Origin: Enterobacter cancerogenus
GTDB taxonomy: Bacteria > Pseudomonadota > Gammaproteobacteria > Enterobacterales > Enterobacteriaceae
Reading direction: 5' to 3'
Length of the DNA stretch: 64,000 nt
Assembly (NCBI RefSeq): GCF_019047785.1
Contig: NZ_CP077290.1
Span: 1,364,001-1,428,000, forward strand
Shown: one piece after another, positions 25,224 through 43,720 of the stretch
Position numbering within the stretch: position 1 is the stretch's first letter
Layout: each line of letters starts with the position of its first letter
Notes under the pieces: model-generated
Database searches by the model: none
Told to the model about the DNA's origin: nothing
Seen by the model: only the letters and a program-made list of their open reading frames with translations
Program-made: the position numbers and the translations under genes

Positions 25224-27257
25224 TTAGACATCCGGGAACATCACGCTATTTCCCGGCGCTTCCCTGTGCAGGTGGATAAAGTTCAGGTGCCGTTCATACT
25301 GATCCAGAATGTCTGTAATCACCTGCTCCTTGCTGTAATCCATCAGGTCATTGCCCTGACTGCCTTCCAGCAGGAACGTCTCAAGCCGGTAGTAGGTCGA
25401 TTTCCCGCTACGTGCGCGATAGGTAAACCCAGGCACGGAATACTGCTGCGGCCAAATCTGGTAGACAAAGTTCTGCTCGTCGCCCATATGCACCAGCAGA
25501 TCCAGGTGCCCCAGGGTTTCGCCCTCTTCCGGCGGCAGGCTTTTCAGCTCGACGTGCGCGCCGCGCAGCTTCAGCTCCTGGGCCACCTCTTCCATTGCCG
25601 GGAAGCAGACCGTCTCCATCATCTGTTTGGTGTAACGCGTGCCGGGGTAGTTCATCAGGCGCGACAGGCGTTTTTTCCAGCTCAGGCGGTCCTGCGAGCC
25701 CATCGGGCGCGGGGCGGTGTCGCGGCTGGCGCTTTCGCGGCGGTAGTCCTCTACCTTCAGCGATTTGTACAGCCCGGCCATCACGAAGAAGATAACAAAG
25801 CTGAACGGCAGCCCCATGATCACCGTGGTGTTCTGCAGGGCGGAAATACCGTTGGTCATCAGCATGCCGAGCGTCAGCAGGCCAATGGCGACCGACCAGA
25901 AGATGCGGATCCAGTTTGGCGCGTCGCTGTTGATGTCCTTCAGCTTCGAGGTGAAGTTCCCCAGCACCAGCGCGCCGGAATCCGCCGAGGTGACGTAGAA
26001 CAGCAGGCCGGTAATGGTCGCCACGGAGGCGCTAAAGGTAAACGCCGGATACTGCGCCAGCAGGCTGTAGAAGCCGCGCTCCGGGTGCGCCATCGCCTCC
26101 TGGGCAAACGCCGCGTCGCCGTGAATAATCTCGTGCAGCGCGCTGTTGCCGAACACTGACAGCCACAGCAGCGTAAAGGTGAACGGGATAATCAGCGTTC
26201 CCAGCACGAACTGGCGGATGGTGCGCCCGCGCGAAATACGCGCCAGGAACAGGCCGACAAACGGCGACCAGGCCACCCACCACGCCCAGAAGAACAGCGT
26301 CCAGCTGTTCATCCACTCCACCGGGCGGTCAAAGGCGAAGCTGTTCAGCGTCATGCCCATAAAGCGGTTCACGTAATCGCCGACGTTAAGCACCAGCGCG
26401 TTGAGCAGGAACGAGGTGTCGCCCATAAACAGCACGAACAGTATCAGCCCCAACGCCAGCGCGACGTTCAGCTCGGAGAGCACGCGGATCCCTTTATCCA
26501 CGCCGGAGGTAACCGAAATGGTGGCGATAATCACCGACAGCGCAATCAGCGCCGCTTTGGCCGCCATCGAATCCGGAATATCAAACAGCACGCTCAACCC
26601 GTAGTTGAGCTGCACCACGCCAATCCCCAGCGTGGTGGCGATGCCGAAGATGGTACCGATCACCGCCGCGATATCCACGGTATGCCCAATCGGCCCGTTA
26701 ATTTTTTTGCCGAAAATCGGATAGAGCGCAGAGCGGATGGTCAGGGGCAAATTATAACGATAGCTAAAGTATCCGAGCGCCATCCCCATCAGGGCGTACA
26801 TCGACCAGCCGGTCAGGCCGTAGTGGAACAGCGTCCAGACCATCGCCTGGCGCGCGGCCTCAATGGTCTGCCCCGCCCCTTCCGGCGGCTGCATATACTG
26901 TGTCACCGGCTCGGCCACCGAGAAGAACATCAAATCGATACCGATGCCTGCAGCAAACAGCATGGCGGCCCAGCTCAGCAGGCTAAATTCGGGCTTTGAC
27001 TGCTCTGGCCCGAGCTTCACCGAACCGAAGCGCGAGCAGGCAATGCACACCACGAAGACGATATAGAGCGTCGCCGCCAGCAGATAGTACCAGCCGAAGG
27101 TTTTCGACACCCAGTTGAGGGTGCGCCCGATCCACTCGGCAGAAAAATCACGAAAGAAGATCGTCGTCAGGGAAAACAACAAAATCAGCCCGGCGGAAGT
27201 ATAAAAAACGACCGGGTTGATTTTGTCTTTTTCTCTGTCCTGTGAAAGGTCTGTCAT
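25224..27257 (-). CDS. betT: High-affinity choline transporter BetT
   Basis: A 677-residue BCCT-family symporter that imports choline with protons for glycine betaine synthesis. About 12 membrane helices fill the first 500 residues. The BCCT signature with its Trp-rich segment (NSWTLFFWAWWVAWSPFVGLF) is present. The long hydrophilic C-terminal tail typical of BetT, which senses osmolarity, is complete (ends HREAPGNSVMFPDV). It is divergent from betIBA across a BetI-operator region. Confidence 0.95.
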   Translation of the reverse strand: MTDLSQDREKDKINPVVFYTSAGLILLFSLTTIFFRDFSAEWIGRTLNWVSKTFGWYYLLAATLYIVFVVCIACSRFGSVKLGPEQSKPEFSLLSWAAMLFAAGIGIDLMFFSVAEPVTQYMQPPEGAGQTIEAARQAMVWTLFHYGLTGWSMYALMGMALGYFSYRYNLPLTIRSALYPIFGKKINGPIGHTVDIAAVIGTIFGIATTLGIGVVQLNYGLSVLFDIPDSMAAKAALIALSVIIATISVTSGVDKGIRVLSELNVALALGLILFVLFMGDTSFLLNALVLNVGDYVNRFMGMTLNSFAFDRPVEWMNSWTLFFWAWWVAWSPFVGLFLARISRGRTIRQFVLGTLIIPFTFTLLWLSVFGNSALHEIIHGDAAFAQEAMAHPERGFYSLLAQYPAFTFSASVATITGLLFYVTSADSGALVLGNFTSKLKDINSDAPNWIRIFWSVAIGLLTLGMLMTNGISALQNTTVIMGLPFSFVIFFVMAGLYKSLKVEDYRRESASRDTAPRPMGSQDRLSWKKRLSRLMNYPGTRYTKQMMETVCFPAMEEVAQELKLRGAHVELKSLPPEEGETLGHLDLLVHMGDEQNFVYQIWPQQYSVPGFTYRARSGKSTYYRLETFLLEGSQGNDLMDYSKEQVITDILDQYERHLNFIHLHREAPGNSVMFPDV

Positions 27258-27322
27258 CCAGTATCCCCACTGTTTTTGTAACTATTGAAATCCAAATCCG
27301 CAACAATTAAGACACATTTTAT

Positions 27323-27336
27323 ATTGAACGTCCAAT
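27323..27336. promoter_or_regulatory. Likely BetI operator
   Basis: ATTGAACGTCCAAT is a near-perfect palindrome in the betT-betI divergent region, placed where BetI, a TetR-type repressor relieved by choline, controls both directions in E. coli. Confidence 0.6.
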
Positions 27337-27385
27337 CAAAAACCGCTTTAATGTATTACCAACGCTGATGAATGGAGTGGCAAAA

Positions 27386-27973
27386 ATGCCCAAACTGGGG
27401 ATGCAGCCGATCCGGCGCAGGCAGCTGATCGACGCCACGCTGGAAGCAATTAATGAAGTGGGAATGCACGACGCCACCGTGGCGCAGATCGCCCGCCGGG
27501 CGGGGGTATCCACGGGGATCATCAGCCACTACTTCAAAGACAAAAACGGCCTGCTGGAAGCGACCATGCGCGACATCACGGGCCAGCTGCGCGACGCGGT
27601 GCTGAACCGCCTGCACGCCTTGCCGCACGGCAGCGCCGAACAGCGTTTGCAGGCAATTGTCAGCGGCAACTTCGATGAAACCCAGGTCAGCAGCGCAGCA
27701 ATGAAAGCCTGGCTGGCCTTCTGGGCGAGCAGCATGCACCAGCCGATGCTTTACCGATTGCAGCAGGTGAGCAGCCGCCGCCTGCTGTCGAACCTGGTGT
27801 ACGAGTTTCGTCGTGAACTGCCGCGTGACCAGGCGCAGGAGGCAGGCTACGGGCTGGCGGCCCTGATCGACGGGCTGTGGCTACGCGCTGCCCTCAGCGG
27901 CAAACCGCTGGATAAAACCCTGGCCCAGTCGCTCACCAGCCACTTTATCAGCCAGCATTTACCGACCGATTAA
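27386..27973 (+). CDS. betI: Choline-responsive repressor BetI
   Basis: A 195-residue TetR-family repressor of the bet genes. The N-terminal HTH ([20 protein letters not shown], about residues 25-45) and the ligand domain match E. coli BetI, including its length. ATG 27386 ([14 protein letters not shown]) is preferred over ATG 27368 because GGAG precedes it and the protein then matches the family start. It is the first gene of betIBA. Confidence 0.96.
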
Positions 27974-27986
27974 CCGAGGAGAAAGT

Positions 27987-29459
27987 ATGTCCCGAATGGC
28001 AGAACAGCAGCTTTATATCAATGGTGGTTATACATCCGCCACCAGCGGTCGCACCTTCGAGACCATCAACCCGGCCAATGGTGACGTCCTGGCGACGGTG
28101 CAGGCCGCAGGTCGCGAGGATGTCGATCGCGCGGTAGAAAGCGCACAGCGCGGGCAAAAGATCTGGGCGGCGATGACCGCTATGGAGCGTTCGCGCATTT
28201 TGCGCCGCGCCGTGGAGATCCTGCGCGAGCGTAACGACGAGTTGGCAAAACTCGAAACGCTGGATACCGGTAAAGCGTTTTCTGAAACCAGCACCGTGGA
28301 CATCGTCACCGGTGCGGACGTGCTGGAGTACTACGCGGGGTTGATCCCGGCGCTGGAAGGCAGCCAGATCCCACTGCGTGACACCTCGTTCGTTTACACC
28401 CGTCGCGAGCCGTTAGGCGTGGTGGCGGGGATCGGCGCGTGGAACTACCCGATCCAGATCGCCCTGTGGAAATCCGCGCCGGCGCTGGCGGCGGGCAACG
28501 CGATGATCTTCAAACCGAGCGAGGTCACCCCGCTCACCGCCCTGAAGCTTGCCGAAATTTACACCGAGGCGGGCCTGCCGGACGGCGTGTTTAACGTCCT
28601 GCCGGGCGTCGGGGCAGAAACCGGCCAGTTCCTGACCGAACATCCGGGCATCGCGAAGGTCTCCTTTACCGGCGGCGTCGCCAGCGGCAAAAAGGTGATG
28701 GCAAACTCGGCGGCCTCGTCCCTGAAAGAGGTGACGATGGAGTTGGGCGGCAAATCACCGCTGATTATTTTCGACGATGCGGATCTCGATCTCGCGGCAG
28801 ACATCGCCATGATGGCCAACTTCTTCAGCTCCGGCCAGGTGTGCACCAACGGCACCCGCGTGTTTGTGCCTGCGAAATACAAAGCCGCATTTGAGCAGAA
28901 AATTGTCGAGCGCGTGGGTCGCATCCGTGCGGGCGATCTGTTCGATGAAAACACCAACTTTGGCCCGCTGGTCAGCTTCCCGCACCGCGACAACGTGCTG
29001 CGCTACATCGCCAAAGGCAAAGAGGAAGGCGCGCGCGTACTGTGCGGCGGCGACGTGCTGAAAGGTGAAGGCTTTGACAACGGCGCGTGGGTGGCCCCGA
29101 CCGTGTTCACCGACTGCACCGACGAGATGACCATCGTGCGCGAGGAGATCTTCGGGCCGGTGATGTCCATTCTCACCTATCACACTGACGAAGAAGCCAT
29201 TCGTCGCGCCAACGACACCGACTACGGCCTGGCGGCGGGCATCGTCACCGCCGATCTGAACCGCGCCCACGGTGCAATCCACCAGCTCGAAGCGGGCATC
29301 TGCTGGATCAACACCTGGGGTGAATCCGCTGCGGAGATGCCGGTCGGCGGCTATAAACACTCCGGCATTGGCCGCGAGAACGGGGTGATGACGCTCCAGA
29401 GCTATACCCAGGTGAAGTCCATCCAGGTTGAGATGGGTAAATTCCAGTCCATATTTTAA
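27987..29459 (+). CDS. betB: Betaine aldehyde dehydrogenase BetB
   Basis: A 490-residue NAD(P)+-dependent aldehyde dehydrogenase that oxidises betaine aldehyde to the osmoprotectant glycine betaine. The catalytic Glu is in TMELGGKSP, the catalytic Cys in [11 protein letters not shown], and [10 protein letters not shown] lies in the cofactor site. It lies 13 bp after betI and 13 bp before the betA start, with a good AGGAG ribosome site. Length matches the family. Confidence 0.97.
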
Positions 29460-29472
29460 CCGGGAGGTTTAT

Positions 29473-31137
29473 TTGCAATTTGACTACATCATTATTGGAG
29501 CCGGCTCTGCCGGCAACGTGCTGGCAACACGACTGACTGAAGATCCGAACACCACCGTACTGCTGCTTGAAGCGGGCGGCCCGGATTACCGTTTTGACTT
29601 CCGCACCCAGATGCCCGCCGCGCTGGCGTTTCCGCTGCAGGGCAAGCGCTACAACTGGGCGTATGAAACCGAGCCAGAACCGTATATGAACAACCGCCGC
29701 ATGGAGTGCGGACGCGGTAAAGGGCTGGGCGGCTCATCGCTGATCAACGGCATGTGCTACGTGCGCGGTAACGCCATGGATCTGGATAACTGGGCGAAGG
29801 AAGCCGGGCTGGAGCACTGGAGCTATCTCAACTGCCTGCCCTACTACCGCAAGGCGGAGACGCGCGACGTGGGGCCGAATGACTACCACGGCGGCGACGG
29901 TCCGGTGAGCGTTACCACCTCCAAACCGGGCGTGAACCCGCTGTTTGAGGCGATGGTGGAAGCGGGCGTGCAGGCGGGTTATCCGCGCACCGACGATCTC
30001 AATGGCTACCAGCAGGAAGGCTTCGGGCCGATGGATCGCACCGTCACGCCGCAGGGCCGACGCGCCAGCACGGCACGCGGCTATCTGGACCAGGCGAAAC
30101 CGCGCCCGAACCTGACCATCCGTACTCACGCCATGACCGATCACATTATCTTTGACGGCAAACGTGCGGTGGGCGTCGAGTGGCTGGAGGGCGAAAGCAC
30201 TATCCCGTCGAAAGCAACGGCGAACAAAGAAGTGCTGCTGTGCGCGGGGGCGATTGCCTCTCCGCAGATCCTTCAGCGTTCCGGCGTGGGCAACGCTGAA
30301 CTCCTGAAGCAGTTCGACATTCCGCTGGTGCATGACTTACCCGGCGTGGGTGAGAACCTGCAGGATCACCTGGAGATGTATCTCCAGTACGAGTGCAAAG
30401 AGCCGGTCTCCCTCTACCCTGCCCTGCAGTGGTGGAACCAGCCGAAAATTGGCGCGGAGTGGCTGTTTGGCGGCACCGGCGTGGGCGCAAGCAACCACTT
30501 CGAAGCGGGCGGGTTTATCCGCAGCCGCGAGGAGTTCGCGTGGCCGAATATTCAGTACCACTTCCTGCCGGTGGCGATTAACTACAACGGCTCGAACGCG
30601 GTGAAAGAGCACGGTTTCCAGTGTCACGTCGGCTCCATGCGCTCGCCGAGCCGCGGGCACGTGCGGATCAAATCCCGCGACCCGCATCAGCATCCGGCGA
30701 TCCTGTTTAACTACATGTCCCACGAACAGGACTGGCAGGAGTTTCGCGACGCGATCCGCATCACCCGCGAGATCATGCACCAGCCCGCGCTGGACAAATA
30801 CCGTGGCCGGGAAATCAGCCCGGGCGTGGAGTGCCAGACCGACGAGCAGCTGGACGAGTTCGTGCGTAACCACGCTGAAACCGCCTTCCACCCGTGCGGC
30901 ACCTGCAAGATGGGCTACGACGAGATGGCGGTGGTAGATGGCGAAGGCCGTGTTCACGGGCTGGAAGGGTTACGCGTGGTGGATGCGTCGATCATGCCGC
31001 AAATCATCACCGGCAACCTGAACGCCACCACCATTATGATTGGCGAGAAAATTGCCGATGCGATCCGCGGGCGCGAGCCGCTGGCGAAAAGCACGGCAGC
31101 CTATTATGTGGCGAACGGCGCACCGGTGCGCCGGTAA
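29473..31137 (+). CDS. betA: Choline dehydrogenase BetA (TTG start)
   Basis: A 554-residue GMC flavoprotein that oxidises choline to betaine aldehyde. The FAD dinucleotide motif is near the N-terminus ([16 protein letters not shown]), the GMC signature includes [15 protein letters not shown], and the active-site His region is [11 protein letters not shown]. The real start is TTG 29473 (MQFDYIII), 5 bp after GGGAGG and matching the E. coli N-terminus. The in-frame ATG at 29428 lies inside betB. A weak start may help set the BetB to BetA ratio (inference). Confidence 0.95.
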
Positions 31138-37424: not shown

Positions 37425-37748
37425 GTTAATCACAACCTGTTCATCAGTCTGCCTCTCTTGCAGAGGCCTGTTTCTTCTGGCCTCCTCAATGCATTGATTA
37501 GCATTATTCAACAATTCGTCCCGCGTTTGCCCTCCAGCCTCTGTTTACGCCCTTCTGTCCCCATCGACATGCCCTTGCCGTAAGGCTTTATGCCGCAATA
37601 TCCAAATACAACTTTTTGTTGATTATTACACATAGAGCGTATAATTTACCCTGACCAGGCTTTTCTGATTTCCTTCAACCGTACGGGATGGCGATCAACA
37701 TGAAGGTCTACACTGTCATCTGACAACGCTGCATACGAGGGAGTAAAA
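37425..37748. other. Intergenic region upstream of the YheO-like regulator
   Basis: No gene seen in these 324 bp apart from the promoter described at 37616-37645. Confidence 0.5.
37616..37645 (+). promoter_or_regulatory. Predicted sigma-70 promoter of the YheO-like regulator gene
   Basis: TTGTTG and a perfect TATAAT are 18 bp apart. The -35 overlaps ACAACTTTTTGTT (37609-37621), also found in the promoter at 35765-35793. Confidence 0.6.
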
Positions 37749-38417
37749 ATGAAATCAGATTACGCCAAAGAGATTGAACTGATTTCCGGGCCGCTGGAAG
37801 CGGCAATGGACGCGCTGGCAAGCACATTATCGGCCAATCAGGAGGTGGTGCTGCATAACCTCACCAGGCCGGAGTGCTCGGTTGTCAAAATCATCAACGG
37901 CCACGTTAGCGGCAGAAAGGCCGGTGACAATCTCCTGTCCGGCCCTGAGAAGGACAAAGGGTTCGCCCTGTTGCTTAAAAACCGCCAGGACAGTACCCCG
38001 GTCACGGTAAAAGATTATAAAACCGCGACGTTATCAGGAAAGATCCTCAACAGCGCCTCGACGCTCTATTTCAGCGAAGACGGTATTCCCCTGATGGCCT
38101 TCTGCATCAACGTCGATACCTCGCCGTATGAACAAATGCGCAAAAGCCTGGACGCCGTGATGGCCTGCGCGCGCCCTGACTCCGACGCACAGGATATTAA
38201 TCTCGGCGGCCTGATTGAGCAGTCTATTCAGGAAATTATTGATAAGCATTCGGTTCCGGGTAAGAAAATCCAGAAAGCACAGCGGCTTAAAATCGTTGCT
38301 GAAATGCACGCTAAAGGCATTTTTAAAATGCGGGGCGGCGTTCAGCACGCGGCCCAGGCCTTGGGCATAACACGTTATACGGTTTATAACGATCTCGAGG
38401 TATTGGGTGAAAAATAA
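37749..38417 (+). CDS. YheO/DauR-like PAS-HTH transcriptional regulator
   Basis: A 222-residue regulator of the YheO family. A PAS-like sensor domain (about 10-125, HNLTRPECSVVKIINGHVSG, YFSEDGIPLMAFCINVD) is followed by a C-terminal HTH (about 160-220, GGVQHAAQALGITRYTVYND). DauR, which responds to D-arginine catabolism, is a known member. It overlaps the phzF-like gene by 11 bp and heads the gene group containing the glycyl radical enzyme, so it is the likely controller. The inducer is unknown. Confidence 0.85.
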   Translation: MKSDYAKEIELISGPLEAAMDALASTLSANQEVVLHNLTRPECSVVKIINGHVSGRKAGDNLLSGPEKDKGFALLLKNRQDSTPVTVKDYKTATLSGKILNSASTLYFSEDGIPLMAFCINVDTSPYEQMRKSLDAVMACARPDSDAQDINLGGLIEQSIQEIIDKHSVPGKKIQKAQRLKIVAEMHAKGIFKMRGGVQHAAQALGITRYTVYNDLEVLGEK

Positions 38418-39210
38418 CGGGCAGCAACGCATTCCGTTTTACCAGGTAGACGCGTTCTCTAACGGGCCTTTTACGGGCAATCCGGCGGCGGTTTGCCTGC
38501 TGGATGCGTGGCCGGATGACAAAGTTCTGCAGCGCATCGCCACGGAAAACAATCTTTCTGAAACCGGGTTTGTCATTAAACAGGGCGACGATTTCGGGCT
38601 GCGCTGGTTTACGCCCGCGGTAGAGGTGGATCTCTGCGGCCATGCGACGCTCGCGGCGGCCAGCGTCCTGCTGAGCCGTAACGAGGCGGGCGAGCGGATG
38701 CGCTTTCATACGCGCAGCGGCGTGCTGACCGTCACCGCCTGTAACGGCGTTTATACACTCGATTTTCCGCTTGTGACGCCCGTCAGGATCGCCCCGCCGC
38801 AAGGCCTGTTCGCGGCGCTGGGGCTTCACGAGGACGCGGGCGAAGTCTGGCAGGCATCCGACCTTATCGTGGTTATTAATGATGAAAACTCGCTGGATTT
38901 GCTGAAGCCGGATTTCAACGCGCTGGAAAAATTCGATACCCGCGGCGTTGTGGTCACGGTAGCGTCACGCGACGTCGATTTCCGCTCCCGCTGGTTTGGC
39001 CCGCAGGTTGGCGTGAACGAGGATCCGGTCACGGGTTCCGCACACACCTTCCTCGCCCCGCTGTGGAGTGAGAAGCTCGGGAAAAAAACGCTTCATGCGC
39101 AACAGGGCGGCAGCCGCAAAGGTGAGCTGACCTGCGAGATAAAAGATAACGGACGCGTCGCACTCTCCGGTGAGGCATGTCTGATTATCGAAGGCGCGTA
39201 TATTTTGTAA
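38407..39210 (+). CDS. PhzF family isomerase/epimerase
   Basis: A 267-residue PhzF-like protein of the diaminopimelate-epimerase fold. It starts with the family segment FYQVDAFSNGPFTGNPAAVC, has the catalytic Glu in NLSETGFV, and shows RWFTPAVEVDLCGHATLAAA and NEDPVTGSAHTFLAPLW. Such proteins isomerise amino-acid-like or aromatic acids. The start is GTG 38407, overlapping the regulator by 11 bp, so the two are coupled. A strong terminator follows, so the SMR/GRE genes may have their own promoter. Confidence 0.9.
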   Translation: MKNNGQQRIPFYQVDAFSNGPFTGNPAAVCLLDAWPDDKVLQRIATENNLSETGFVIKQGDDFGLRWFTPAVEVDLCGHATLAAASVLLSRNEAGERMRFHTRSGVLTVTACNGVYTLDFPLVTPVRIAPPQGLFAALGLHEDAGEVWQASDLIVVINDENSLDLLKPDFNALEKFDTRGVVVTVASRDVDFRSRWFGPQVGVNEDPVTGSAHTFLAPLWSEKLGKKTLHAQQGGSRKGELTCEIKDNGRVALSGEACLIIEGAYIL

Positions 39211-39234
39211 ACACACGGACGTGTGTTTTTTCTT
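39209..39234 (+). terminator. Rho-independent terminator after the phzF-like gene
   Basis: AACACAC, loop GGAC, GTGTGTT, then TTTTTCTTT, beginning inside the stop codon. It separates the regulator/PhzF pair from the SMR/GRE genes. Confidence 0.85.
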
Positions 39235-39312
39235 TATTATTATTAAAGACGAATTACTATTTTTTTAGCAAAAAAGACATAACCCATTATTAATCAGCAT
39301 GAGAATTATTCC

Positions 39313-39648
39313 GTGACGTTATCCAAAAGCGTTACCGCGCTTATTGCTGCGGTATCCATAGAAATTATTGCCACAACGTTATTATCGTTATCAAATAGTT
39401 TTCAGCGCCCTACCATTGGCATGACGGCAATACTGTTTTATGGCATAAGTTATTATTTCTTATCCGTCGCGTTACGCAGAATTCACATTGGCGTAGCATA
39501 TGCCATCTGGTCTGCGGTGGGCATACTCAGTATTACCTATATTCAGACGCGCTGCTTCGATTATATTCTGACGCAGAGCGCATGGATCGGCGTCTGCCTT
39601 GTGATAAGCGGCACGGTAATTTTAAACCTGGCCATTAAACAAAAATAA
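39313..39648 (+). CDS. SMR family transporter subunit 1
   Basis: A 111-residue small multidrug resistance protein with four membrane helices and a GTG start at 39313. The conserved helix-1 Glu is in AAVSIEIIATTLL, and VAYAIWSAVGI matches the SMR helix-3 GxxG region. It lies 15 bp before a second, different SMR gene, so a heterodimer is likely. SMR proteins export guanidinium, quaternary amines or polyamines; here the partner may carry the substrate or product of the glycyl radical enzyme (inference). Confidence 0.88.
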   Translation: MTLSKSVTALIAAVSIEIIATTLLSLSNSFQRPTIGMTAILFYGISYYFLSVALRRIHIGVAYAIWSAVGILSITYIQTRCFDYILTQSAWIGVCLVISGTVILNLAIKQK

Positions 39649-39663
39649 ATCACGCGACGAATC

Positions 39664-39990
39664 ATGATGTTTACACTATTGACTTACCTCTTCTGGCTGA
39701 TTATTTCAGTCACCATGGAAGTTATTGGTACGCTACTGCTACCCCAAACGGATAACTTTAAAAATAAATCCGTGACGCTTTTATGCATGGTCTGTTACGT
39801 CATGTCCTTTTATGCCCTGTCAATGCTGATGGATGCGGTAACACCGGTCGTCGCTTATGCCGTCTGGTCAGGTTTTGGCATTGTCATGATCGCGTTGATG
39901 AGCAGCATCTTTTATCAAATGCGCAGCAGCGTGCTGGAAAAGGTGGGGATCTGCTGCATCGTGGCCGGTCTGATTGTGATAGCGGTTTAA
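39664..39990 (+). CDS. SMR family transporter subunit 2
   Basis: A 108-residue SMR protein with four helices. The helix-1 Glu is in IISVTMEVIGTLLLP, and AYAVWSGFGIVMIAL is the helix-3 region. It starts MMFTLLTYL; ATG 39664 or 39667 are both possible. The stop is 11 bp before the glycyl radical enzyme start. The two SMR proteins differ clearly from each other, as in EbrAB- or YdgEF-type pairs, where subunits insert in opposite orientations. Confidence 0.88.
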   Translation: MMFTLLTYLFWLIISVTMEVIGTLLLPQTDNFKNKSVTLLCMVCYVMSFYALSMLMDAVTPVVAYAVWSGFGIVMIALMSSIFYQMRSSVLEKVGICCIVAGLIVIAV

Positions 39991-40001
39991 CGGGAGAAAA
40001 T

Positions 40002-42383
40002 ATGAAAATCGATGCGCTTTCACTTCGGGTGCGCCAGCTTCGCGATAACTACCTGCAGGCCAAACCCTTTGTCTCTGCCCGGCGGGCGATCAGCGTGACC
40101 CGGGTTTATAAAGAAAACCCGGGCATGGATAACACGCTCCTCCGGGCGCTGGCTTTTCGCCGCGCCTGTGAGAATGCGCCCCTGTATGTGGCCGACAATG
40201 AACTGATCGTGAGCCATCCGGCCGGAGGGGCACGCGGCGGCGAGATATCGCCGGAAATCAGCTGGCGCTGGGTCGCCGACGAGCTGGATACCCTCCCGCA
40301 GCGGGCGCAGGATCCGTATCAGATTGATGACGAAACAAAGCGCCTGCTTCGCGAAGAGGTGTTCCCCTACTGGGAAGGCCGCTCGCTGGATGAGATGGCG
40401 CAAACGCAGCTACAGGTTCTGGGGCTGTGGGAGTGGTGTCACGACGACGGCATTTGCGATGTGACCATCAAGACGCAAAACGGCGGAGGTGACTCCTGCC
40501 CCGGGTACGACAATATCCTGCTCACTAAAGGGATAAAAGGGATCCGTGAAGAGGCGGCAGCCCGGCTTGCCGCGGTTGATCCGGCGTCACCGGAAGGCGC
40601 AGAGGCGTTCAACTTTTACACGGCGATGCTGCACACCTGCGATGGCGTGCTGACCTATGCCCACCGTTACGCGGCCCGGCTGAGCGAGCTGGCTGAAACC
40701 GAAGGCGACCCGCTTCGCCAGGACGAGCTGCGGCATCTGGCGGACATCTGCCGTCGCGTACCGGAACAGCCGCCGCGCCATTTTCACGATGCATTGCAGG
40801 CTATCTGGTTCGTCCATTCTCTTTTTACCCTGGAAGAAAACCAAACCGGTATCTCCCTGGGCCGCGTCGATCAATACCTCTGGCCGTTGCTGGAGCGGGA
40901 TCTTAATGACGGCGTACTGACGCACGCGCAGGCAGAAGAGCTGCTCTGTTGCTGGCTGATCAAGATGGCGGAGACCCTGTGGATTTGCAGTGAATCTACG
41001 GCGATGTATTTCGCCGGCTATCAGCCGTTTATCAACCTCGTGGTCGGGGGCCAGAAGCGTGAGGGCGGCGATGCCACCAATCCGCTGACCCTGATGATCA
41101 TGGACTGCTCGGCGCAGTTAAAAATCTATCAGCCCGGCCTGGCCGTGCGGATCCACAACCAGTCGCCTCAGCCCTTTATGCGCAAGGTGGTCGATGTGGT
41201 GCGCAGCGGAATGGGTTTCCCGGCCTGCCATTTCGACGATGCGCATATCCGGATGATGTTGCACAAAGGCTTCAGCTATGAGGATGCCCGCGACTACTGC
41301 CTGATGGGCTGCGTTGAGCCACAGAAGGCAGGCAAAATGTATCAGTGGACGTCGGTGGGTTACACCACCTTCACCGCCGCCATCGAACTGGCGCTGCGTA
41401 ACGGGCGATCGTCAGCCGGTAAACCCTGTGGTCCGGCAACGGGTGAGGTGTCCGCGTTCAGCTGCTATGACGACGTGGAGCGTGCCGTTCGCACGCAACT
41501 CTCCGCCATCGTCAGGAAAGCCGCGCAGGCCACGCTGATTGTGCAAAAGCTGCATGCCGATTACGCCCGAAAACCGCTGATGTCGAGCCTGATCGACGGC
41601 TGCATGGCGACAGCCAAAGACGTCACCCAGGGCGGCGCGGTGCTCAACGCCGGGCCGGGGCTGATCTGGACCGGGCTGGCAGACTGCGTTAACTCACTGA
41701 TGGCCATCAGGACACTGGTTTTTGAGACCCAACGCTTTACGCTGCAGCAGGTGGTGGACGCGCTCGAACACAACTTTGTCGGCCACGACGACATTCTGAC
41801 CGCCTGCCTGCGGGCGCCCAAATACGGTAATGACATTCGCGCGGTGGATGAGATCGCCCGCGAGCTGGTGCGTTTCCTGGAGCAGGAGCACCGTCAGTAC
41901 CGGATGCTGTATGCGCCTTTTGCCTTCGGCACGCTTTCTATCTCGAATAACACGCCGTTTGGCCTTATCACCGGTGCGCTGCCTTCGGGCCGACTGGCGG
42001 GCAAGCCGCTGGCCGATGGGATCAGCCCCTCTCAACAGACGGATTATCTGGGGCCGACGGCCATCATCAACTCCGTCAGCCGGATCAACGTCGAGGAGAT
42101 GGATATTGGCATGGTGCACAATATCAAGCTGATGTACGGCATGCTGGAAACCCCGGAGGGCCAGAACAGCCTCATCCACCTGCTGCGCACGGCCAGCATC
42201 CTCGGGAACGCCCAGCTGCAGTTCAGCTATGTGGACGACGACACCCTGCGCCAGGCCCAGCAGAACCCCGGCGACTATCGCAATCTGATGATTCGGGTGG
42301 CGGGGTACAGCGCCTTCTTTGTGGAGCTGAGTAAGGAGGTGCAGGATGAAATTATCAGCCGAACCACGCAACGGCACTTCTGA
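40002..42383 (+). CDS. Glycyl radical enzyme, CutC-like C-N/C-O lyase family
   Basis: A 793-residue glycyl radical enzyme. The C-terminal radical loop is RVAGYSAFFVEL with the radical Gly at position 768. The active-site thiyl Cys is Cys437 in LMGCVEPQ, followed by the general-base Glu439. The stretch after it (KAGKMYQWTSVGYT) and the late GTLSISNNTPFG, DGISPSQQTDY and NIGMVHN-like region (IGMVHNIKLM) resemble choline trimethylamine-lyase CutC more than pyruvate formate-lyase. It lacks the long N-terminal extension of type II CutC. The near N-terminal loop is GGGDSCPGYDN (162-171), where I would expect GHxxxDY in CutC, so the substrate may differ. ATG 40002 follows GGGAGA. The next gene, overlapping by 38 bp, is its activase. 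It needs anaerobic conditions. Confidence 0.92.
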   Translation: MKIDALSLRVRQLRDNYLQAKPFVSARRAISVTRVYKENPGMDNTLLRALAFRRACENAPLYVADNELIVSHPAGGARGGEISPEISWRWVADELDTLPQRAQDPYQIDDETKRLLREEVFPYWEGRSLDEMAQTQLQVLGLWEWCHDDGICDVTIKTQNGGGDSCPGYDNILLTKGIKGIREEAAARLAAVDPASPEGAEAFNFYTAMLHTCDGVLTYAHRYAARLSELAETEGDPLRQDELRHLADICRRVPEQPPRHFHDALQAIWFVHSLFTLEENQTGISLGRVDQYLWPLLERDLNDGVLTHAQAEELLCCWLIKMAETLWICSESTAMYFAGYQPFINLVVGGQKREGGDATNPLTLMIMDCSAQLKIYQPGLAVRIHNQSPQPFMRKVVDVVRSGMGFPACHFDDAHIRMMLHKGFSYEDARDYCLMGCVEPQKAGKMYQWTSVGYTTFTAAIELALRNGRSSAGKPCGPATGEVSAFSCYDDVERAVRTQLSAIVRKAAQATLIVQKLHADYARKPLMSSLIDGCMATAKDVTQGGAVLNAGPGLIWTGLADCVNSLMAIRTLVFETQRFTLQQVVDALEHNFVGHDDILTACLRAPKYGNDIRAVDEIARELVRFLEQEHRQYRMLYAPFAFGTLSISNNTPFGLITGALPSGRLAGKPLADGISPSQQTDYLGPTAIINSVSRINVEEMDIGMVHNIKLMYGMLETPEGQNSLIHLLRTASILGNAQLQFSYVDDDTLRQAQQNPGDYRNLMIRVAGYSAFFVELSKEVQDEIISRTTQRHF

Positions 42384-43305
42384 ACAGGTCACCGGCTGGA
42401 TCACCCACATTCAGCGGTTTTCATTACATGACGGGCCGGGGATCCGCAGTATCGTCTTTTTCAAGGGGTGCCAGATGCGCTGCGCCTGGTGTGCAAATCC
42501 CGAAGGGCTTCACCCCGATCGGGAGATCTTTTTCCATGCCGAACGCTGCCTGCACTGCGGACAATGCGCGCAGCTGTGCCCGACAGGGCTGCACAGCTGG
42601 CAGGACGGGCTGCACAGCCTGAACCGCGACCGCAGTTGCACGGGCTGTGGGCTGTGCGAAGAACGCTGCCCCGCCGCCGCCCTCAACGTGGTTGGCGAAC
42701 CGCTCAGCGTTGAAACGGTGTTCGACCGGGTGATGGCTGATGAGATCTGGTTTCGGCAGTCTGGCGGGGGCGTAACGCTGAGCGGCGGCGAAGTGGCTAC
42801 CCAGCCGGATTTTGCCCAGGCGCTGATCGCCCGGCTCAAGGCCGAAGATATTCACACCACGATTGAAACGGCGGGTTATGCCTCCTGGCGTGCGCTCCAT
42901 CAGGTCACGTCGGGCTGCGATCTTATTCTGTACGATCTTAAAAGCGCGGATGACGCGCTTCACCAGCGCTTTACCGGTGTCAGCAATAAAATCATCGTGC
43001 GCAATCTGGTCCGACTCATTGACGAGGGGCGCAAGATAATTATTCGTATCCCGGTCATCCCCGATTTTAATGACGCGCCGGAATCAGCAGAGCAATTATT
43101 GACACTTATTTATTCTTTAATCCACGGACGGGACAACGTACTGGGCGTTGAATTATTGCCTTACCATCGCTTTGGGACAGGGAAATACACATTACTCAAC
43201 AGGGAATACGCGTGGAATTGTTATTCCGCAAATCTGGATAACGTCCTGCGCATTGCTCAACATATCGGCCTGCCCGTACGGGTATCAGGTACGCTGGCCG
43301 GATAA
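42346..43305 (+). CDS. Glycyl radical enzyme activating protein (radical SAM)
   Basis: A 319-residue radical SAM activase that installs the glycyl radical on the upstream enzyme. The SAM cluster is C42-x3-C46-x2-C49 (GCQMRCAWC). Two ferredoxin-type clusters follow: C68/C71/C74/C78 and C98/C101/C104/C108. Other family motifs are LHDGPGIRSIVFFKG, GGGVTLSGGE and YDLKSADDALHQRFTG. The double insertion is typical of activases of dehydratase/CutC-type enzymes, not of PflA. ATG 42346 follows AAGGAGG and overlaps the enzyme gene by 38 bp, so they are coupled. Confidence 0.93.
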   Translation: MKLSAEPRNGTSEQVTGWITHIQRFSLHDGPGIRSIVFFKGCQMRCAWCANPEGLHPDREIFFHAERCLHCGQCAQLCPTGLHSWQDGLHSLNRDRSCTGCGLCEERCPAAALNVVGEPLSVETVFDRVMADEIWFRQSGGGVTLSGGEVATQPDFAQALIARLKAEDIHTTIETAGYASWRALHQVTSGCDLILYDLKSADDALHQRFTGVSNKIIVRNLVRLIDEGRKIIIRIPVIPDFNDAPESAEQLLTLIYSLIHGRDNVLGVELLPYHRFGTGKYTLLNREYAWNCYSANLDNVLRIAQHIGLPVRVSGTLAG

Positions 43306-43313
43306 AGGGGAAA

Positions 43314-43445
43314 ATGTCTGTGTTACCAACATCAGAAAGTCATCCAAAAAAAGAGGTCACCACACTTGAGCGGCGCGTTGTCGCAGGCTCGCTGTTTTTT
43401 ATCCTGGTCATCTATGGCGTATTGCTGTTCACGCAATTTCGCTAA
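43314..43445 (+). CDS. Small membrane protein linked to the GRE operon (43 aa)
   Basis: A 43-residue protein with a hydrophilic N-terminus (SESHPKKEVTTLERR) and one membrane helix (VVAGSLFFILVIYGVLLFTQ), ending F-R-stop. It starts 8 bp after the activase stop with AAAGGGGAAA as ribosome site, so it is almost certainly in the same operon. No family is recognised. It could be a small subunit or regulator of a transporter, for example the SMR pair (inference). Confidence 0.65.
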   Translation: MSVLPTSESHPKKEVTTLERRVVAGSLFFILVIYGVLLFTQFR

Positions 43446-43501: not shown

Positions 43502-43720
43502 ATGAAAAAAGTTGTCGCAATTATGAGTCTGGCATTTATCACCCTCAGCATTGCAGGGTGTTCCAGCGATTATGTTTTACAGAAGAAAAACGGGGAGATG
43601 ATTATCACCCACGGGAAACCCGAGGTAGATGATGACAACGGGTTAATTACCTATGAAGACGTTGCCGGTAATGAGCACGCTATTAACCGGGACCAGATTG
43701 TGCAGATGATTGAGAAATAA
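43502..43720 (+). CDS. YgdI/YgdR family lipoprotein
   Basis: A 72-residue lipoprotein. The signal peptide ends in lipobox IAGC (Cys20), followed by the small YgdI/YgdR domain (YVLQKKNGEMIITHGKPEVD, then LITYEDVAGNEHAINRDQIV). Several paralogues occur in enterobacteria; function is unknown. A bidirectional terminator follows. Confidence 0.88.
   Translation: MKKVVAIMSLAFITLSIAGCSSDYVLQKKNGEMIITHGKPEVDDDNGLITYEDVAGNEHAINRDQIVQMIEK

What the first reader, a model, noticed from the sequence alone, without database searches (positions are those of the whole stretch)
37749..43445. Compact glycyl radical enzyme cluster with paired SMR exporters and no microcompartment
Seven adjacent same-strand genes encode a YheO/DauR-like regulator, a PhzF-like isomerase, two different SMR proteins, a CutC-like glycyl radical enzyme, its double-ferredoxin activase and a 43-residue membrane protein. 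CutC clusters normally come with shell proteins and aldehyde-processing enzymes; none are here. The combination suggests anaerobic cleavage of an amine- or guanidine-containing compound, with the SMR pair moving substrate or product. Gene identities are well supported; the pathway is inference.
Basis: partly seen in the sequence, partly recalled or inferred. Interest (0 to 1): 0.75.

Follow-up and report, generated by a model that had tools for sequence, protein, structure and literature searches.

The report
Compact choline-lyase-like operon, no microcompartment
An Enterobacter-type bacterium carries a small, shell-less set of genes built round a radical enzyme that closely resembles the gut enzyme turning choline into trimethylamine, but it belongs to a separate untested branch with two altered pocket residues, so it is either an overlooked source of trimethylamine or an enzyme for a related compound.

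Summary
In detail: seven intact same-strand genes at 37749-43445 encode a YheO/DauR-type regulator, a PhzF-family protein, two SMR proteins, a CutC-like glycyl radical enzyme (GRE), its activase and a 43-aa membrane protein. The BMC shell domain PF00936 is absent from the whole genome. An SMR pair is a normal part of enterobacterial choline (cut) clusters; SMR2 groups with the cut SMR-b, and the pair has the same opposite charge bias. A guanidine role is not supported. The GRE exceeds NCBI's CutC cut-off and keeps 11 of 13 choline-pocket residues checked, but Tyr208 is Ile and His209 is Lys. In 126 compared sequences this change (Ile 53, Val 1; Lys 54) lies across a fully supported branch from all 72 Tyr-His sequences. 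SMR genes before GRE and activase recur in four genomes of three other enterobacterial genera, with decay in some; regulator, PhzF and small protein were seen only in the own genus. In three of five genus genomes the island lies near the choline-betaine (bet) genes. Most likely: an anaerobic choline-type C-N lyase with amine export and no organelle. The substrate is untested.

The parts
37609..37647 (+). Conserved promoter-like block CAACTTTTTGTTGATNATTANACA...TATAAT upstream of the regulator
   Evidence: TTTTTGTTGATNATTANACA kept at all defined positions in 5 of 5 genus genomes while the flanks diverge; only perfect copy in the own genome, 7 others with 3 mismatches. Function inferred.
37749..38417 (+). 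Regulator with YheO-like PAS_6 and HTH_22 (DauR/YheO type), 222 aa
   Evidence: PF08348 and PF13309 over cut-off; linked in 4 of 4 other genus genomes with the cluster, not found in 4 loci of other enterobacterial genera
38407..39210 (+). PhzF-family isomerase-like protein, 267 aa
   Evidence: PF02567, TIGR00654 over cut-off; nearest solved structures 1s7j and 4dun
39209..39228 (+). Terminator-like hairpin with T tail between PhzF and SMR1
   Evidence: 10 found in the region, 6.6 expected; not conserved in relatives, so weak
39313..39648 (+). SMR1, 111 aa, predicted N-in subunit
   Evidence: PF00893; K/R bias +3
39664..39990 (+). SMR2, 108 aa, predicted N-out subunit; groups with cut-cluster SMR-b
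   Evidence: PF00893; K/R bias -3; tree support 93/88 with cut SMR-b
40002..42383 (+). CutC-like glycyl radical enzyme, 793 aa; Cys437, Glu439, Gly768, Ile156, Lys157
   Evidence: TIGR04394 1124.3 bits; PDB CutC chains; residues
42346..43305 (+). Glycyl-radical activase (radical SAM, two ferredoxin-type clusters), overlaps the GRE by 38 bases
   Evidence: TIGR02494 over cut-off; CutD model TIGR04395 299.7, below its cut-off 360; CQMRCAWC and 8 further Cys
43314..43445 (+). 43-aa small protein, predicted by eye to span the membrane once (LERRVV...VIY.LL.TQF)
   Evidence: homologous small ORF in 4 of 4 other genus clusters; no family
43502..43720 (+). YgdI/YgdR-type lipoprotein that accompanies the island
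   Evidence: NF033216 over cut-off; downstream of the cluster in all five genus genomes, with a transposase gene in between in one
25224..31137 (.). bet genes: betT (25224-27257, -), betI (27368-27973, +), betB (27987-29459, +), betA (29428-31137, +): choline uptake, choline-sensing repressor, oxidation to betaine
   Evidence: NCBIfam BetT, BetI, betaine-aldehyde dehydrogenase and choline dehydrogenase models, all over cut-off; frames checked

Best explanation
A microcompartment-free anaerobic C-N lyase system for choline or a very close choline-like amino alcohol. Substrate enters through general choline uptake (BetT lies in the same window; inferred). The regulator senses a ligand and drives the operon from the conserved promoter (inferred). 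The activase uses SAM to place a radical on Gly768; the radical moves to Cys437, which takes the C1 hydrogen; Glu439 deprotonates the hydroxyl and the amine leaves, giving (for choline) trimethylamine and acetaldehyde (inferred from CutC chemistry and conserved residues). The SMR1/SMR2 pair forms an antiparallel heterodimer that exports the protonated amine against protons (pairing supported by charge bias; cargo inferred). Acetaldehyde goes to the cell's ordinary aldehyde enzymes, without a shell (inferred). PhzF and the 43-aa protein are own-genus accessories of unknown role. The GRE belongs to a lineage separate from the characterised CutC, with Ile-Lys in place of Tyr208-His209.
For: CutC equivalog score over cut-off, and below the cut-offs of every other GRE model listed. 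Catalytic Cys/Glu/Gly and Asp216, Thr334, Phe389, Phe395, Met487, Thr502, Tyr506 unchanged in 54 of 54 Ile/Val-Lys and 72 of 72 Tyr-His sequences. SMR2 groups with cut SMR-b (93/88) and the pair has the same +/- charge pattern as Klebsiella and Proteus cut SMRs, whose genes are choline-induced in Proteus (PMC5026066 passages). SMR genes precede GRE and activase also in G269, G554 and G533, with decayed SMR traces in G493. The Tyr-His rows nearest to the lineage include Syntrophotalea acetylenica, which I recall to be the former Pelobacter acetylenicus; Pelobacter makes TMA from choline with no shell genes seen near cutCD (PMC6200775 section 6). Proteus cutCD alone sufficed in E. coli, with BetT uptake raised by salt (PMC5026066 section 5 and passages). 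No PF00936 in the genome. Island near bet in 3 of 5 genus genomes.
Against: Tyr208 is a choline-binding residue of CutC, and Y208F/Y506F lowers efficiency about 83-fold (passages); it is Ile or Val in all 54 lineage members compared, and a fixed Lys adjoins it. Activase is below the CutD cut-off. bet proximity was noticed after the fact, the three genomes may share one insertion, the betA-GNAT region also takes other DNA, and cluster presence does not track bet presence: 3 of 39 genomes with betA, 2 of 22 without. Some relatives show decay: SMR2 stop in G044, SMR1 tail altered in G554, SMR traces only in G493, activase frame short in G269. SMR1 shares its half of the SMR tree with Gdx and MdtIJ as well as cut SMR-a, by long branches. 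PhzF is unexplained.
Confidence: 0.6

Rival explanations
1. A GRE of the CutC fold whose changed strand (Ile156-Lys157) fits a different, perhaps zwitterionic or larger hydroxyalkyl ammonium, e.g. L-carnitine (C3 hydrogen, loss of trimethylamine from C4) or another plant-derived amino alcohol; choline is not the main substrate.
For: Only 7 columns are fixed differently between the 54 Ile/Val-Lys and 72 Tyr-His sequences, and three (204, 208, 209) cluster at the strand that carries Tyr208 and Asp216 (that 204 is on the strand is inferred). PMC8473560 passages say this strand supplies substrate-binding residues in CutC, IslA and HypD. PhzF has no evident place in choline cleavage. Source-named enterobacterial members include Brenneria, Erwinia, Pantoea, Serratia, Phytobacter besides Enterobacter.
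Against: Asp216, Phe395 and the other cation-site residues are all retained; carnitine is only a chemical suggestion; whether Lys157 reaches the pocket was not modelled.
Confidence: 0.27
2. A functional or decaying relic of a canonical cut cluster that lost its shell genes and is now under weak selection.
For: Cut-type SMR pair; decay in G044, G554, G493, G269; patchy presence, 5 of 61 genus genomes.
Against: All frames are intact in the window; the promoter core is kept in 5 of 5 genomes; the GRE is 81-90% identical across the genus; it lies across a fully supported branch from the enterobacterial type II.a CutC.
Confidence: 0.1
3. A guanidine-compound pathway with guanidinium-type SMR exporters.
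For: Only that the own Gdx falls in the half of the SMR tree that holds SMR1, together with MdtI, MdtJ and cut SMR-a, on long branches flagged as unsafe.
Against: SMR2 groups with cut SMR-b. The own Gdx has LEVVWAIG where SMR1/2 have IEIIATTL/MEVIGTLL (that the Trp marks Gdx is recalled). SugE model 29.5 of 126 for SMR2, not listed for SMR1. The GRE keeps the quaternary-ammonium site.
Confidence: 0.03

Closest known systems
CutC/CutD choline trimethylamine-lyase and activase (types I, II.a, II.b)
   Same: Glycyl radical, Cys-X-Glu, cation site, adjacent double-ferredoxin activase; GRE over TIGR04394 cut-off; Tyr-His CutC proteins listed are about 51-57% identical
   Different: Separate lineage; Tyr208 to Ile and His209 to Lys; no long N-terminal extension as in II.a; activase below TIGR04395 cut-off
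cut gene clusters in GRE-associated microcompartments
   Same: SMR pair in the same cluster as the GRE, with the same charge pattern
   Different: No shell proteins, no aldehyde or alcohol dehydrogenase, no phosphotransacylase; own regulator, PhzF and small protein
Pelobacter cutCD without nearby shell genes (PMC6200775)
   Same: CutC-type GRE without shell genes nearby; the Syntrophotalea acetylenica CutC (P0120) is among the Tyr-His rows nearest to this lineage
   Different: P0120 keeps Tyr-His; its neighbourhood was not examined here
Paired SMR transporters (MdtIJ type)
   Same: Two adjacent genes with opposite K/R bias (PMC9574504 passages)
   Different: Tied to a GRE operon; SMR2 nearest to cut SMR-b, not to the genome's MdtI or MdtJ

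Membership tests
CutC choline TMA-lyase | Glycyl radical motif, Cys489, Glu491 | tested here: met
   Gly768, Cys437, Glu439
CutC choline TMA-lyase | NCBIfam TIGR04394 cut-off 1050 bits | tested here: met
   1124.3; five other Ile-Lys members 1149.8-1409.8, three Tyr-His members 1570.1-1672
CutC choline TMA-lyase | All choline-pocket residues, Tyr208 included | tested here: not met
   Ile156 and Lys157 replace Tyr208 and His209; the others kept
CutC choline TMA-lyase | Falls within the clade of characterised enzymes | tested here: not met
   Fully supported branch separates it from all Tyr-His rows (100; 100/100); which side is older is unresolved
CutC choline TMA-lyase | Turns choline into trimethylamine | not testable with these tools
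   Needs biochemistry
CutD activase | TIGR04395 cut-off 360 bits | tested here: not met
   299.7; general GRE activase model TIGR02494 met
cut microcompartment cluster | Shell proteins | tested here: not met
   PF00936 0 matches in the genome; control positive
cut microcompartment cluster | SMR pair | tested here: met
HypD, HpsG, HpfG (sulfopropanediol), PFL, indoleacetate and hydroxyphenylacetate decarboxylase | NCBIfam equivalog cut-offs | tested here: not met
   HpsG 547.9 of 1000, HypD 496.3 of 1100, HpfG 462.5 of 1000, the rest also below their cut-offs
Isethionate lyase, glycerol and propanediol dehydratase | Placement in a joint tree | not tested
   None of these was in the trees; the PDB search only ranks their chains far below CutC chains
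Gdx guanidinium exporter | Gdx/SugE-type sequence | tested here: not met
   NF008512 SugE 29.5 of 126 for SMR2, not listed for SMR1; alignment with own Gdx. No listed SMR model's cut-off was reached by either protein in NCBIfam.
Paired (heterodimeric) SMR | Adjacent genes with opposite K/R bias | tested here: met
   +3 and -3
PhzF family | PF02567 / TIGR00654 | tested here: met
   193.4 and 126.6 bits, both over cut-off; reaction unknown

The most novel reading that the evidence does not exclude
The Ile-Lys lineage, found from Desulfovibrio-type bacteria to plant-associated enterobacteria and labelled 'choline trimethylamine-lyase' by automatic annotation, is a distinct glycyl radical C-N lyase for another quaternary or zwitterionic amino alcohol (for example a radical carnitine lyase giving trimethylamine and acetoacetate), run without a microcompartment and, in enterobacteria, with a dedicated heterodimeric amine exporter.
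Probability: 0.25. Interest if true: 0.8.

Novelty: new variant of a known kind. Interest (0 to 1): 0.5.

Why it matters
If the enzyme cleaves choline, Enterobacter and plant-associated enterobacteria gain a second, shell-less route to trimethylamine; surveys that use CutC profile models would count it, while checks of signature residues could reject it. If it does not, proteins now named CutC are misnamed and a new radical C-N lyase awaits a substrate. Either way two adjacent residues give a direct test of what sets substrate choice in CutC, and the stripped operon tests whether a shell is needed at all.

Tried and rejected
Guanidine route: disfavoured. FNR-type box (recalled consensus): 33 matches with 2 mismatches in the window against 16.8 expected, none better; not claimed. 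Terminator between PhzF and SMR1: seen in the window only, so no claim of two transcription units. E. coli genomes, near mode: no match. Plasmids: 11 records, best 55.6%, no close copy. Class-wide draw at E<=1e-250: 1 of 369 genomes, the own genome itself. Neighbourhood of the Desulfovibrio GRE: no SMR by tblastn in the 12 kb read on either side; Pfam of five neighbours gave a chemoreceptor, an EamA transporter, a sigma-54 activator, a sulfate permease and a cytochrome-TPR protein; shell genes there were looked for by eye only. Rooting of the GRE tree: outgroups attach among Tyr-His rows and among Ile-Lys rows, on very long branches, so the ancestral state is left open. Structure prediction and fold search were not run, because solved CutC structures are close in sequence and the tools give no coordinates to judge Lys157.
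Full report
What is there. The seven genes are present as described. Regulator and PhzF overlap by 11 bases, and GRE and activase by 38. The GRE is 793 aa and scores 1124.3 bits against the NCBI CutC model (cut-off 1050), below the cut-offs of the other 11 models listed. Its best solved relatives are CutC structures. The activase passes the general GRE-activase model but not the CutD model (299.7 of 360). It has the radical-SAM motif CQMRCAWC and eight cysteines of two ferredoxin-type clusters. The own genome has four PFL-like proteins over the family cut-off; at E<=1e-200 the GRE query finds only itself there. PF00936 shell domains are absent from the whole 4.82-Mb genome, with a working control.

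The enzyme is CutC-like but in a separate lineage. I numbered the query against D. alaskensis CutC by the catalytic Cys (Cys437 = Cys489). Residues named as choline pocket or nearby in PMC13258700, PMC8473560 and PMC12451663 (passages) were compared in 127 proteins returned by two searches; one fragment lacks the region, leaving 126. Asp216, Thr334, Phe389, Phe395, Met487, Cys489, Glu491, Thr502, Tyr506 and the radical Gly are identical in all 54 lineage members and all 72 others. Leu698 and Ile700 lie in the motif GTLSIS, kept in the 11 CutC-type rows printed (my column numbers for these two were off by one, and numbering of late columns is approximate). Position 208-209 is Tyr-His in 72 of 72, and Ile-Lys (53) or Val-Lys (1) in 54 of 54. 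Only seven columns are fixed differently at 95% or more in both groups; three of them (204, 208, 209) cluster at the strand with Asp216. The 127 are the top of 2255 and 3391 hits, so this is not a census.

Trees. With 84 rows (quick method) the Ile-Lys rows form one side of a branch with SH-aLRT 100. With 45 rows and nearer outgroups the Tyr-His rows form one side with 100/100. The outgroups attach on different sides in the two trees, on very long branches, so which state is older is open. In both trees the Syntrophotalea acetylenica group (P0120) is among the Tyr-His rows nearest the split. On the Ile-Lys side the source-named enterobacterial members (Enterobacter, Brenneria, Erwinia, Serratia, Phytobacter, Pantoea) lie together, nested among rows that include Solidesulfovibrio (P0035), with Desulfuromonas (P0116) nearer the split; this suggests transfer into enterobacteria (inference). 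HypD, IslA and diol dehydratases were not in these trees.

The SMR pair. Enterobacterial cut clusters have it: two annotated SMR genes close the Klebsiella cut cluster (in a second record one is annotated and a second frame matches), and in Proteus two emrE homologues in the cut cluster are among the choline-responsive genes (PMC5026066 passages). An Enterococcus cut cluster instead shows a DMT family transporter among its annotated genes and no SMR. In a tree of 21 SMR proteins SMR2 groups with the cut SMR-b (93/88). SMR1 lies with cut SMR-a, MdtI, MdtJ and Gdx in the other half, with long-branch warnings. Lys/Arg counts give SMR1 +3 and SMR2 -3; Klebsiella and Proteus cut pairs give +4/-3 and +5/-3. 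PMC9574504 (passages) says adjacent SMR genes of opposite bias form heterodimers.

Conservation of the operon. In the own genus 5 of 61 genomes carry the lineage's GRE: G000, G003, G037, G043 (split over two contigs) and G044. All five have regulator, PhzF, SMR1, SMR2, GRE, activase and, downstream, the YgdI/R lipoprotein, and all five have the small ORF. Two overlapping draws of the family (392 and 378 genomes) gave four further genomes in three other genera: G269, G554, G533, G493. SMR genes precede the GRE in all four, as traces only in G493, and tblastn found no regulator, PhzF or small protein beside them. Signs of decay: SMR2 of G044 has a stop after residue 63, SMR1 of G554 has an altered tail, SMRs of G493 are broken, the G269 activase frame is only 186 aa. 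The ferredoxin cysteines fall from eight or nine in the own genus to 5, 0, 4 and 1 in L080, L081, L082 and L067; the Desulfovibrio activase has 8. In that Desulfovibrio (G575) GRE and activase stand without SMR genes in the 12 kb read on each side.

Control region. Upstream of the regulator a block TTTTTGTTGATNATTANACA, followed by TATAAT (TATACT in one), is kept at its defined positions in 5 of 5 genus genomes while the surroundings diverge. It is the only perfect match in the genome; seven others have three mismatches. It was not found within 3 mismatches in L067 and L080-L082, and one looser match lies in the Proteus record. I read it as the operon promoter with a regulator site; this is inference.

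Place in the genome. The bet genes for choline uptake and oxidation lie in the same window at 25224-31137; BetT, BetI, BetB and BetA all pass their NCBIfam cut-offs. betA ends 6.6 kb before the regulator here, 0.6 kb in G043 and about 12 kb in G037; G003 and G044 have no betA match. I fetched the betA region of 5 of the 36 genus genomes that have betA but not the cluster: in three, betA is followed within about 0.1 kb by the GNAT gene that here lies beyond the island; in a fourth about 5 kb separates them and in the fifth GNAT was not found. So in three genomes the island sits between betA and GNAT. This fits a choline role, but the site also takes other DNA, one insertion may explain all three, and I noticed it after the fact. 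Presence of the two does not correlate: 3 of 39 with betA, 2 of 22 without.

How it most likely works. Shown: gene identities, conserved catalytic and cation-site residues, SMR charge pattern, absence of PF00936, linkage. Inferred: the activase radicalises Gly768; Cys437 abstracts hydrogen from the hydroxyl-bearing carbon; Glu439 takes the hydroxyl proton; the ammonium group leaves; the SMR heterodimer exports it; the aldehyde is handled by general metabolism. That a shell is not obligatory is supported by Pelobacter (PMC6200775 section 6) and by TMA formation in E. coli expressing only Proteus cutCD, with salt added to raise BetT (PMC5026066 section 5 and passages). The main doubt is Tyr208: the Y208F/Y506F double mutant of CutC loses about 83-fold efficiency (PMC12451663 passages). 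An aliphatic residue with a neighbouring Lys, fixed across the lineage, may mean another substrate.

Prior knowledge. Type I and II CutC are described (PMC5026066 section 5). Screening by signature residues was used in PMC5433236 (section 5), which mentions a few exceptions among its CutC candidates without naming them there; its supplements were not read. Ten paper searches gave no listing whose title or abstract start describes this operon or an Ile-Lys CutC lineage; most subscription papers are not held, and PMC5493019 (Bodea 2016) was not available. Sources name several of these proteins choline trimethylamine-lyase, so they are known by label but not, as far as I found, by function.

Verdict. 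Observation confirmed; interpretation partly supported. A new variant of a known kind, interest 0.5, with a testable chance of a new substrate. That the genus is Enterobacter is inferred from L006, titled E. cloacae, whose place matches G037 of the same genus.

Noticed in passing
25224-31137: A complete bet gene set (betT, betI, betB, betA) in the same window; the betA-GNAT interval is a variable spot in the genus, empty in some genomes and filled in others.
   Followed up: partly
L080, L081, L082, L067 activase genes: The double-ferredoxin part of the activase is degenerate or missing in four of four enterobacterial loci outside the own genus (5, 0, 4, 1 Cys against 8-9), although the own-genus and Desulfovibrio activases keep it.
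   Followed up: partly
L069 7041-8021: A transposase gene (PF01609, PF05598) lies between the small ORF and the lipoprotein gene in G044.
   Followed up: partly
L068 12285-13550 (minus strand): In G003 PhzF and SMR1 lie in one continuous open frame, unlike in the window.
   Followed up: partly
L067 2072-5844: The G269 copy of the core operon lies beside malonate decarboxylase genes (MdcG and MdcH models over cut-off), a Mem_trans transporter and a LysR regulator.
   Followed up: partly
L088 287-5498: Upstream of the Desulfovibrio Ile-Lys GRE lie a chemoreceptor, an EamA transporter and a PAS/sigma-54 activator gene; EamA/DMT transporters are distant kin of SMRs.
   Followed up: partly
window, both strands: Loose FNR-like sites (2 mismatches, recalled consensus) are twice as frequent as in shuffles: 33 against 16.8, no shuffle as high.
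   Followed up: no
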